Shown one piece after another: positions 2,744 through 5,439 of a DNA stretch of 64,000 bases. The notes under the pieces are model-generated. The model did no database searches. It saw only the letters and a program-made list of their open reading frames with translations, and was not told where the DNA came from. The position numbers were made by a program, and so were the translations under genes. The first letter of the stretch is position 1; every line of letters begins with the position of its first letter. The DNA is from Antarctobacter heliothermus (GTDB lineage: Bacteria > Pseudomonadota > Alphaproteobacteria > Rhodobacterales > Rhodobacteraceae): NCBI RefSeq assembly GCF_900188425.1, contig NZ_FZON01000011.1, positions 1-64,000 on the forward strand. The letters run 5' to 3'.

Positions 2744-5245
2744 CTATTGACACTTGGAATGCCCACACGACCCGCACGTCATGCAGCCTTCGACCATGCG
2801 CAGGTCATATTGGCCGCAGTTCGGGCAGGCCGGGCCGCGGGGTTGATCGAGGTTGACGACCTGCGCCTGAGGGTCGCTTTTCAGGCCCATACCCTCACCC
2901 TCAAGGAACCCGGTCGAGATCATGTGCCGTTCGATCACGCCACCGATCGCGGCCAGGATCGAGGGGATGTATTTGCCTTGCACCCAGGCACCGCCGCGCG
3001 GGTCGAAGACGGCCTTGAGTTCCTCCACCACAAAGGACACATCGCCGCCGCGCCGGAACACCGCCGAGATCATCCGAGTCAGCGCCACGGTCCAGGCGAA
3101 ATGCTCCATGTTCTTGGAATTGATGAACACCTCAAACGGACGGCGGTGTCCGCTGACGATAATGTCGTTGATCGTCAGATAAATCGCATGCTCGCTGTCG
3201 GGCCATTTCAGCTTGTAGGTATTGCCTTCAAGCGCCTGTGGGCGGTCCAGCGGTTCGGACATGTAGACGACGTCGCCGTGGGGTTGGAGGGGTTCGGCCT
3301 CGGTTTTGGAGACAACTTCGGGCGACGAAGGTACCTTCATGAACTCCGACAATTCCTTGCCAAAAGCCGCCGAAATCGCGATGGCGTTTTCTGCGCTAGT
3401 GGAACTGCCCTTTCGAGACATGAGTTTTTTCAAGACATCCAGTGAAACCTTCGCTTCAGCAGCGACTTCCGAAGCTTTCTTCCCGGAGGTTTCCATGTGC
3501 CATTTCAGAGCCTTGCCAAAGTCGCCAAAGGTCGCCTCCGGGGTCTCCGCCGACACACTCAACACACTCCCGGTCACCGCATTGGGCCGGTAGGTCGTGC
3601 AGCCCTTGCACCCGGTCTCGAACGCCTCAAGGTACACATCCTTGAAATCCTCGAACGAGATATTCTCGGGGCAGTTGATGGTCTTGGAGATCGACGAATC
3701 CACCCATTTCTGGGCCGCCGCCTGCATCCGCACATGCTCTAGCGGGGCCAGCGTCTGGGCGTTCACGAAATACTCGGGCAGCTCCGCATCCGCGCCGTGC
3801 ATCTCGCGGTAGAGCGTCACGGCGTAGTCGGCGATCTCTTCCTCGGTCCGCGATCCGTCCTTTTGCAGCACCTTGCGGGTGTAGGAATAGGCAAAGACCG
3901 GCTCAATCCCCGACGACACGTTCCCGGCATACAGCGAAATTGTCCCGGTCGGCGCAATCGACGTCACCAAGGCGTTGCGAATGCCGTGGGCGCGCACCGC
4001 CTCGCGGACATCCTCATCCATCGCCATCATGGTGTCGCTTGCCAGATATCCCTCGGCCTCGAACAAGGGGAAAGCCCCCTTTTCCTTCGCCAATTGCACC
4101 GAGGCCAGATACGCGGCGCGGGCGATCCGCTTCAGCCAGCGCTCGGTCTGACGCGCCGCCTCCTCTGAGCCATAACGCAGCCGCACCATCAACAGCGCAT
4201 CGGCCAGCCCGGTCACACCCAGCCCGATCCGCCGCTTGTTCATCGCCTCTTGGCGCTGCGCCTCCAGCGGGAATTTCGAGGCATCGACCACATTGTCCAT
4301 CATCCGAACGGCGGTGGCGACAAGGTCGTCCAGCGCGGTCTCATCCAGATGCGCGTCGCCGGTAAAGGGATCGTTCACCAGCCGCGCCATATTGATCGAC
4401 CCCAGCAGGCAGGCCCCGTAGGGCGGCAGAGGCTGTTCACCACAGGGGTTGGTGGCGCTGATCGTCTCGCAATAGTTCAGGTTGTTCGCCTTGTTGATCC
4501 GGTCGATGAAGATCACGCCCGGTTCGGCATAGTCATAGGTGCCGCGCATGATCTTGTTCCACAGGTCGCGCGCCGGCAGCGTGTGATAGACCACACCGTC
4601 GAATTGCAGCTCCCACGGGCCATCCGCCTTGACCGCCGCCATAAAGGCATCCGTCACCAGCACCGACAGGTTGAACATGCGCAAGCGGGCCGAATCCGAC
4701 TTGGCGCCGATGAAATCCTCGATATCCGGGTGGTCGCAGCGCATGGTGGCCATCATCGCCCCGCGGCGCGACCCTGCCGACATGATGGTGCGGCACATGG
4801 AATCCCAGACATCCATGAACGACAACGGGCCAGAGGCGTCCGCCGCCACCCCGGCCACCGGAGCGCCCTTGGGCCGGATGGTAGAGAAATCATAGCCGAT
4901 GCCACCGCCCTGCTGCATGGTCACAGCCGCCTCTTTGAGCATCTCGAAAATGCCACCCATGTTGTCGGGGATGGTGCCCATGACAAAACAGTTGAACAAG
5001 GTGACAGAGCGGTTTGTCCCCGCCCCCGCCGTGATCCGCCCGGCGGGCAGGTATTTGAAATCCTCCAGCGCGGTGTAGAACCGATCCTCCCACAGGGCCG
5101 GATCAGCCTCGACAGAGGCCAGCGACCGGGCGATCCGGCGCCAGGTGTCTTCGACACTCAGGTCGATGGGCGTCCCGTCCGCCTGTTTCAGGCGGTATTT
5201 CATGTCCCATATCTGGTGTGCGATCGGGGCGGCAAAGCGCGTCAT
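2744..5245 (-). CDS. nrdJ: Adenosylcobalamin-dependent (class II) ribonucleotide reductase with an internal XRE-type HTH domain
   Basis: Makes deoxyribonucleotides with coenzyme B12 as radical source. The 833-residue protein has the reductase barrel with NPCGEQ (catalytic Cys268), TAPTG-type loops, CKGCTTYRP at its end, a C-terminal domain starting near DVVYMSEP, and a last zinc-ribbon-like module with paired Cys (807-833). Family members from related bacteria are, from memory, about 750 residues; the surplus is residues 572-638, which read as a five-helix XRE/Cro-type HTH plus linkers. The insert is lower in GC than its flanks (97 of 190 bases by hand count). The start at 5245 (MTRFAAP) follows GAGGGA; an in-frame ATG at 5287 lacks support. 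Confidence 0.95.
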   Translation of the reverse strand: MTRFAAPIAHQIWDMKYRLKQADGTPIDLSVEDTWRRIARSLASVEADPALWEDRFYTALEDFKYLPAGRITAGAGTNRSVTLFNCFVMGTIPDNMGGIFEMLKEAAVTMQQGGGIGYDFSTIRPKGAPVAGVAADASGPLSFMDVWDSMCRTIMSAGSRRGAMMATMRCDHPDIEDFIGAKSDSARLRMFNLSVLVTDAFMAAVKADGPWELQFDGVVYHTLPARDLWNKIMRGTYDYAEPGVIFIDRINKANNLNYCETISATNPCGEQPLPPYGACLLGSINMARLVNDPFTGDAHLDETALDDLVATAVRMMDNVVDASKFPLEAQRQEAMNKRRIGLGVTGLADALLMVRLRYGSEEAARQTERWLKRIARAAYLASVQLAKEKGAFPLFEAEGYLASDTMMAMDEDVREAVRAHGIRNALVTSIAPTGTISLYAGNVSSGIEPVFAYSYTRKVLQKDGSRTEEEIADYAVTLYREMHGADAELPEYFVNAQTLAPLEHVRMQAAAQKWVDSSISKTINCPENISFEDFKDVYLEAFETGCKGCTTYRPNAVTGSVLSVSAETPEATFGDFGKALKWHMETSGKKASEVAAEAKVSLDVLKKLMSRKGSSTSAENAIAISAAFGKELSEFMKVPSSPEVVSKTEAEPLQPHGDVVYMSEPLDRPQALEGNTYKLKWPDSEHAIYLTINDIIVSGHRRPFEVFINSKNMEHFAWTVALTRMISAVFRRGGDVSFVVEELKAVFDPRGGAWVQGKYIPSILAAIGGVIERHMISTGFLEGEGMGLKSDPQAQVVNLDQPRGPACPNCGQYDLRMVEGCMTCGSCGHSKCQ

Positions 5246-5439
5246 GTCAGGCGATTCCCTCAGGTGGCAGACTGGCAATCCATCCAACAGGTTGAAGATT
5301 GCGAGACGCCTTGTACCATATCCTGACGTCCGGCGGAAAGGGACTGGTTGCCCGCGCGCCCCCGGATCTGCGCACGGACACCCCGATCTTGAACCCGGCC
5401 ACCACCCCGCTATGATCTCCCGGACACGAAAGGCCTGTC

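What the first reader, a model, noticed from the sequence alone, without database searches (positions are those of the whole stretch)
3332..3532. XRE-type helix-turn-helix inserted inside the B12-dependent ribonucleotide reductase
Seen: NrdJ residues 572-638 read as five short helices of the Cro/XRE pattern (FGKALKWHMETSGKK, then ASEVAAEAKVSLDVLKKL and a Ser-rich turn), between the barrel end CKGCTTYRP and the C-terminal VVYMSEP domain. The insert is in frame. By hand count 97 of 190 bases are G/C, below the flanks. Known: XRE domains bind DNA as dimers; NrdJ is not a DNA-binding protein. Inference: a domain from a regulator or phage repressor was captured, giving possible autoregulation or an oligomer contact.
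Basis: partly seen in the sequence, partly recalled or inferred. Interest (0 to 1): 0.78.

Follow-up and report, generated by a model that had tools for sequence, protein, structure and literature searches.

The report
Swappable phage-repressor-like domain in NrdJ
In one family of marine bacteria, a DNA-building enzyme (B12-dependent ribonucleotide reductase) has again and again acquired, at exactly the same spot, a small DNA-binding domain resembling those of phage repressors, a different one in almost every species, which may be a natural way of gaining immunity to phages.

Summary
Window 3332-3529 (minus strand) encodes a five-helix XRE domain inserted in frame in the linker between the NrdJ barrel and its TSCPD/zinc C-terminus. 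AlphaFold2 models it as a separate, tethered domain (pLDDT 80-95). Of 397 genomes of the same family, 48 carry an XRE domain at this site; most of the others have a short linker. Almost every carrier has a different XRE domain. The window's NrdJ and that of a congener share 97.7% of the backbone but 10.6% of the domain. The domains form some 15 types, with at least 43 changes on the NrdJ tree and no significant correlation with backbone identity. GC3 is lower than the backbone in 45 of 49. No HTH was seen outside the family or in viral NrdJs. The window's type is shared with CI-like repressors of a prophage and a viral contig, flanked by lambda-like operator arrays (RTGCCNNNNGGCAY); nrdJ promoters lack these. 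One pair, with and without the domain, has a 98% identical promoter, against autoregulation. Best guess: natural repressor fusions that give phage immunity (inferred, about 0.4). Capture and exchange of XRE domains is well supported; the function is untested.

The parts
2744..5287 (-). nrdJ, class II (B12-dependent) ribonucleotide reductase, frame of 847 aa; likely start ATG at 5245 (833 aa)
   Evidence: TIGR02504 NrdJ_Z 590.8 bits, above the cut-off of 400; Pfam barrel PF02867, lgN PF00317, TSCPD PF12637; nearest PDB entry Thermotoga maritima NrdJ 1xje
3590..4993 (-). catalytic barrel, intact
   Evidence: PF02867 at residues 99-566, 2.4e-127; NPCGEQ and GCKGCTTYRP motifs conserved in the alignment
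3536..3550 (-). disordered linker before the insert
   Evidence: AF2 pLDDT below 50 at residues 566-570 of the 833-aa protein
3332..3529 (-). inserted XRE/Cro-CI-type helix-turn-helix domain (type A), five helices at about 3338-3520
   Evidence: Type-A profile hit 3332-3529, E=3.7e-33; AF2 helices 576-587, 591-598, 602-610, 618-627, 632-636; XRE folds by Foldseek; low GC3
3416..3475 (-). helices 2 and 3 of the domain (helix-turn-helix proper; recognition helix VSLDVLKKL)
   Evidence: AF2 helices 591-598 and 602-610; alignment with phage repressors
3257..3310 (-). disordered linker after the insert, within the PEVVSKTEAEPLQPHGD tail that most insert-bearing NrdJs share
   Evidence: AF2 pLDDT below 50 at residues 646-663; conserved tail in A1, also in about 35 insert-free relatives
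2921..3217 (-). TSCPD domain
   Evidence: PF12637 at residues 691-789, 8.5e-11
2759..2842 (-). C-terminal cysteine-rich zinc-ribbon-like segment
   Evidence: CPNC..CMTCGSC..C motif seen in the translation, weak zinc-ribbon Pfam hits; a cysteine-rich C-terminal domain is needed for turnover in another class II RNR (PMC5704485)
5246..5745 (-). upstream region of nrdJ, tested for the phage operator
   Evidence: no RTGCCNNNNGGCAY site with 1 mismatch or fewer

Best explanation
The linker between barrel and TSCPD domain of nrdJ is a hot site at which this bacterial family captures, exchanges and loses XRE DNA-binding domains, at least some of them of phage-repressor (CI) type. SHOWN: same site, unrelated domains, no phylogenetic clustering, foreign base composition, no other domain type at the site in the sample checked, and type-A relatives that are phage CI-like repressors with operator arrays. 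INFERRED: because class II RNRs oligomerise, NrdJ can hold two or more copies of the domain together and so replace the lost dimerisation half of CI. The result would be a natural version of the laboratory lambda-repressor fusion: a constitutive, abundant repressor that cannot be induced and binds the operators of temperate phages of the matching immunity type, giving immunity without a prophage. Turnover of phage immunity types would explain the constant swapping. The reductase itself keeps all its domains and motifs.
For: Recurrence: 48 of 397 family genomes plus two congeners carry an XRE domain at one site. HTH presence needs 28 changes on the NrdJ tree, no better than shuffled labels (mean 29.5; 179 of 500 as low). 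With types, 43 changes; backbone and HTH identity are not significantly correlated (Mantel r 0.084, p 0.094); L001/L005 have 97.7% backbone and 10.6% HTH identity. One NrdJ carries two different HTHs in tandem (L099). Sharp borders: L006 and L015 are about 84-100% identical along the gene outside the linker. GC3 below backbone in 45 of 49, mean -0.22. Specific to XRE: 47 of 49 hit HTH_3; the 45 or so insert-free family NrdJs have gaps too short for another domain. Source: type-A relatives in prophage-like L130 (G134) and viral contig L182 are 104-111-aa repressors flanked on both sides by RTGCCNNNNGGCAY arrays (L130: 1418, 1444, 1468 and 1924, 1978, 2007; L182: 5918, 5944 and 6463, 6493); an S24 CI-type relative, L134; type-D relatives in viral contigs, up to 53% identity. 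NrdJs L007 and L008 have the same helix-3 residues at positions 1, 2, 6 (S/R/N) as the two phage repressors. Oligomers: class II NrdJs form dimers to tetramers (PMC5704485). Precedent: the CI N-terminal domain fused to an oligomerising protein confers immunity to lambda (PMC3004787). Type-A inserts keep a positive charge in 6 of 7.
Against: No binding or immunity experiment exists. Closest stand-alone relatives of type A are only about 53% identical, so direct donors were not found, and no relatives were found in named phages. Types B, C, E, F and G were not traced to phages convincingly: C and E only 35-46%, B weak, G none, F not searched. Inserts as a whole are slightly less positive than stand-alone XREs (mean -0.4 against +1.1, p 0.027), and type G is acidic. 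The window's own domain has S/L/K, not S/R/N, at the assumed contact positions. L129 has S/R/N but no such operators beside it. The numbers are too small to test whether type-A NrdJ excludes type-A prophages. Some type-D relatives are conserved chromosomal S24-like regulators, not phage genes.
Confidence: 0.4

Rival explanations
1. Host regulation: NrdJ uses the XRE domain as its own transcription factor (autoregulation, or control of other host genes by dNTP-dependent oligomerisation), like enzyme-regulators such as PutA or BirA.
For: Class II NrdJ changes oligomer state with dNTPs (PMC5704485), so DNA binding could report dNTP level. The intergenic region of L001/L005 is more diverged (63-74%) than their genes (about 90%).
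Against: L006 (HTH) and L015 (no HTH) have 98% identical promoters; no phage-type operator lies upstream of the readable type-A nrdJ genes, 0 sites with 1 mismatch or fewer in 3.0 kb; about 88% of relatives manage without the domain; unrelated recognition helices would need a new operator at every swap.
Confidence: 0.13
2. General DNA tether: any XRE domain will do, because it only holds the dNTP-making enzyme on or near DNA; specificity does not matter, so domains are exchanged freely.
For: Only DNA-binding domains of one fold are found at the site; unrelated recognition helices are tolerated.
Against: Patchy presence with rapid gain and loss fits a steady benefit poorly; several inserts are acidic.
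Confidence: 0.15
3. Tolerated debris: the disordered linker accepts short foreign open frames, and XRE genes are merely very common on mobile DNA; the domain has no function and is soon lost.
For: The linker is hypervariable and disordered; presence is patchy and quickly lost; two copies are broken (L032, L103); foreign composition.
Against: Only XRE folds are inserted although many other small genes exist; 48 of 50 copies show no detected break and 47 of 49 still match HTH_3; no HTH in about 27 NrdJs of other alphaproteobacterial families or in about 40 viral NrdJs with similar linkers; the cassettes share a common tail.
Confidence: 0.2
4. Decoy or lysogeny stabiliser: the domain binds phage antirepressors or other partners of CI proteins rather than operators.
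For: CI-type relatives; swapping as in an arms race.
Against: No antirepressor was looked for or found; no direct evidence.
Confidence: 0.08

Closest known systems
Lambda-repressor fusions (CI N-terminal domain on a foreign oligomerising protein; PMC3004787)
   Same: Phage-repressor-type DNA-binding domain joined to an oligomeric protein without its own dimerisation half
   Different: Those are laboratory constructs with the domain at the N-terminus; here it is natural, internal and recurrent, and immunity is untested
CI-type phage repressors (type-A stand-alones L130, L182; S24 forms L134, L140)
   Same: Homologous XRE domain; L007 and L008 share the assumed DNA-contact residues with L130 and L182
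   Different: NrdJ lacks the S24 or short C-terminal part and lies in a host enzyme with no operators beside it
Enzyme-regulator fusions such as PutA, BirA and NadR (from general knowledge)
   Same: A metabolic enzyme carrying a DNA-binding domain
   Different: In those the domain is fixed and regulates the enzyme's own genes; here it is patchy and exchanged, and in one pair the promoter does not change with it
Target-recognition-domain exchange in type I restriction HsdS (from general knowledge)
   Same: DNA-recognition domains exchanged between conserved flanks
   Different: Different fold and enzyme; no restriction system
Class II RNR NrdJ, Thermotoga maritima type (1xje)
   Same: Barrel and motifs; nearest solved structure
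   Different: The XRE insert is an addition; none was found in the NrdJs sampled outside the window's family

Membership tests
Class II ribonucleotide reductase NrdJ_Z (TIGR02504) | score above the curated cut-off, barrel with conserved motifs | tested here: met
   590.8 bits against 399.95; PF02867 2.4e-127; motifs invariant in A7
XRE / HTH_3 domain | profile match above gathering score | tested here: inconclusive
   Window alone 19.2 bits, cut-off 23; 47 of 49 same-site inserts match at E<=0.1, best 5e-17
XRE / HTH_3 domain | compact helical bundle with helices 2-3 as HTH | tested here: met
   AF2 five helices, pLDDT 82 alone and 80-95 in the full model; Foldseek hits are mostly XRE domains, TMq 0.66-0.74, though E-values only 0.002-0.03
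CI-type phage immunity repressor | homology to a repressor encoded in a phage lysogeny region | tested here: met
   L182 (viral contig) 41% and L130 (prophage-like region) at E=2.2e-22; operator arrays flank both repressor genes
CI-type phage immunity repressor | own operators adjacent to the gene | tested here: not met
   No site with 1 mismatch or fewer upstream of the readable type-A nrdJ genes
CI-type phage immunity repressor | C-terminal S24 or other dimerisation part of its own | tested here: not met
   Absent; NrdJ TSCPD follows. NrdJ oligomerisation could substitute (inference, PMC5704485)
CI-type phage immunity repressor | sequence-specific operator binding and immunity | not testable with these tools
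   needs gel shift and phage plating
Autoregulatory enzyme (PutA-like) | operator in own promoter that tracks the DNA-binding domain | tested here: not met
   Promoter 98% identical with and without HTH (L006/L015); one pair only

The most novel reading that the evidence does not exclude
Rhodobacteraceae-type bacteria use nrdJ as a fixed receptacle for phage-repressor DNA-binding domains: a heritable, prophage-free immunity system in which an abundant oligomeric housekeeping enzyme serves as scaffold for exchangeable CI domains, with immunity types replaced as phage populations change.
Probability: 0.35. Interest if true: 0.93.

Novelty: new variant of a known kind. Interest (0 to 1): 0.8.

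Why it matters
Enzymes with DNA-binding domains are known, but in the cases I know the domain is fixed. Here one linker of a central DNA-synthesis enzyme has received unrelated repressor-like domains dozens of times within one bacterial family. If the immunity reading holds, it is an unrecognised form of phage defence that cannot be induced and needs no prophage, built on a housekeeping protein and likely to be missed by defence-gene finders. Even if it does not, it is a natural experiment in repeated domain insertion with sharp borders. The operator prediction (GTGCCNNNNGGCAC) makes it testable at once. Searches of the paper library and of two RNR papers found no description of an HTH domain in NrdJ.

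Tried and rejected
(1) Named phages as donors: tblastn of type A and type D found nothing; viral contigs and prophages had to be used. (2) One ancestral HTH with fast divergence: rejected, since 97.7% identical NrdJs have 10.6% identical HTHs. (3) HTH as an ancestral class II RNR feature: rejected, none in about 27 NrdJs of other alphaproteobacterial families. (4) HTH carried in by phage NrdJ genes: about 40 viral NrdJs examined, none has it. (5) Counting paired TGCC-N4-GGCA sites in 298 genomes: too noisy in GC-rich DNA; own genome 0; not used. (6) Mutual exclusion of type-A NrdJ and type-A prophages: none overlap in 121 genomes, but expected overlap is below one, so no information. (7) Loss of positive charge as a sign of lost DNA binding: small overall difference, none in type A. 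(8) Type-A profile for the collection scans failed for lack of a conserved stretch; repeated with A6.

Full report
1. What is there. The minus-strand frame 2744-5287 encodes a class II, B12-dependent ribonucleotide reductase (TIGR02504 590.8 bits, cut-off 400; barrel, N-terminal and TSCPD Pfam domains; nearest solved relative Thermotoga maritima NrdJ 1xje). It has the lowest GC3 of the gene, 0.60 against 0.80. Pfam sees HTH_3 only weakly in this one sequence, but AlphaFold2 predicts five helices with good confidence, both alone (pLDDT 82) and in the full protein (80-95), flanked by segments below 50: a separate domain on flexible tethers. Its nearest solved folds are mostly XRE domains, including CapH, DdrO, SinR, P22 C2 and 434 Cro (Foldseek E-values 0.002-0.03, TM-scores about 0.7).

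2. Relatives. In 100 relatives most NrdJs have a short linker and no domain. A profile of the linker found an XRE domain at this site in 48 of 397 family genomes, drawn nearly one per genus; two congeners (G002, G004) add to 50. The domains sit between SVLSVSEEKK and APEVVATxDAEPxxPHGDVVYMSEPLD. About 35 insert-free NrdJs have the same tail, as if the domain had been lost or not yet gained.

3. They are not the same domain. The inserts fall into about 15 types by my grouping, as different as the XRE superfamily. In the window's own genus three species have three unrelated HTHs and three have none. L001 (window) and L005 share 97.7% of the backbone and 10.6% of the domain. Presence needs 28 changes on the tree, as many as random labels; with types the minimum is 43. 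Backbone and HTH identity are not significantly correlated (Mantel r 0.084, p 0.094). L099 carries two different HTHs in tandem. GC3 is below the backbone in 45 of 49 inserts. The main exception is type G, which sits in early branches and is at or near host composition; it looks older and perhaps vertically inherited. Within type A, several NrdJ copies resemble each other more than any phage repressor found, so transfer between NrdJs as well as new capture is likely (inference).

4. Restricted and specific. None of about 27 NrdJs of other alphaproteobacterial families and none of about 40 viral NrdJs with readable linkers has an HTH there. In the sample, insert-free family NrdJs have gaps of at most about 60 nt between the two matched pieces, so no other domain type uses the site. 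Borders are sharp: L006 and L015 are mostly 85-100% identical along the gene, and only the linker differs.

5. Source. Type-A stand-alone relatives were found in other family genomes and in a viral contig, L182. Two of them, L130 (a prophage-like region of G134) and L182, are 104-111-aa repressors flanked on both sides by arrays of RTGCCNNNNGGCAY: three sites before and three after the gene in L130, two and two in L182. Background is about 0.2 sites per kb. This resembles the lambda OL/OR layout. A further relative, L134, is an S24 CI-type repressor. Type-D relatives occur in viral contigs, up to 53% identity, and also as chromosomal S24-like regulators. Types C and E have only distant viral relatives, B weak ones, G none. 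Named carriers of type A in NrdJ: Antarcticimicrobium sediminis, Citreimonas salinaria, Ruegeria sp. PrR005.

6. Function. Autoregulation is disfavoured: the promoter is 98% identical with and without the HTH (L006/L015), and no phage-type operator lies before the type-A nrdJ genes that could be read. A counter-hint, the diverged intergenic region of L001/L005, is noted. My preferred mechanism is a natural repressor fusion. CI N-terminal domains need an oligomerisation partner; fused to an oligomeric protein they give immunity to lambda (PMC3004787). Class II NrdJs form dimers and tetramers (PMC5704485). L007 and L008 have the same residues at helix-3 positions 1, 2 and 6 (S/R/N) as the phage repressors L130 and L182; that these positions touch DNA is assumed from 434 repressor (general knowledge). 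The window has S/L/K, so its operator, if any, may differ. Shown: capture, exchange, predicted fold, phage-type relatives, absence of promoter co-change in one pair. Inferred: DNA binding, oligomer-dependent repression, immunity.

7. Verdict. The capture idea is supported, the autoregulation idea is not. The recurrent exchange is the real finding. I rate the immunity reading at about 0.4 and the evolutionary pattern itself at about 0.9. All domain-function claims need bench work.

Noticed in passing
G000:C102:43339-45570 (own genome, outside the window): A second, larger class II RNR-like frame of 1268 aa with about 32% identity to NrdJ pieces; the window's NrdJ may be one of two RNRs.
   Followed up: no
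G013, G098, G076; G395 and G267: NrdJ frames of 1140-1190 aa. In G013, G098 and G076 the match is split near residue 280 (NPCGEQPL), which looks like an intein at the active-site motif.
   Followed up: no
L099 (G164): Two unrelated XRE domains in tandem in one NrdJ linker (types A and G).
   Followed up: partly
L103 (G230) and L032 (G014): Two inserts are disrupted: L103 runs into foreign-looking sequence inside the HTH, L032 loses frame after it. Sequencing error is not excluded for L032.
   Followed up: partly
L189, L192-L198, L200, L202 (viral contigs): Viral NrdJs that end shortly after the barrel, without TSCPD domain, with a different Cys-containing tail (for example GGACELKYDDNTGQLIRSCE).
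   Followed up: no
L132 and L134 upstream of the type-A repressors: A different operator-like palindrome, about GGGAYNTTTATCCCC, beside repressors with other helix-3 residues.
   Followed up: no
L101 (G162) linker: A run of GEGEGEGE repeats directly after the HTH.
   Followed up: no
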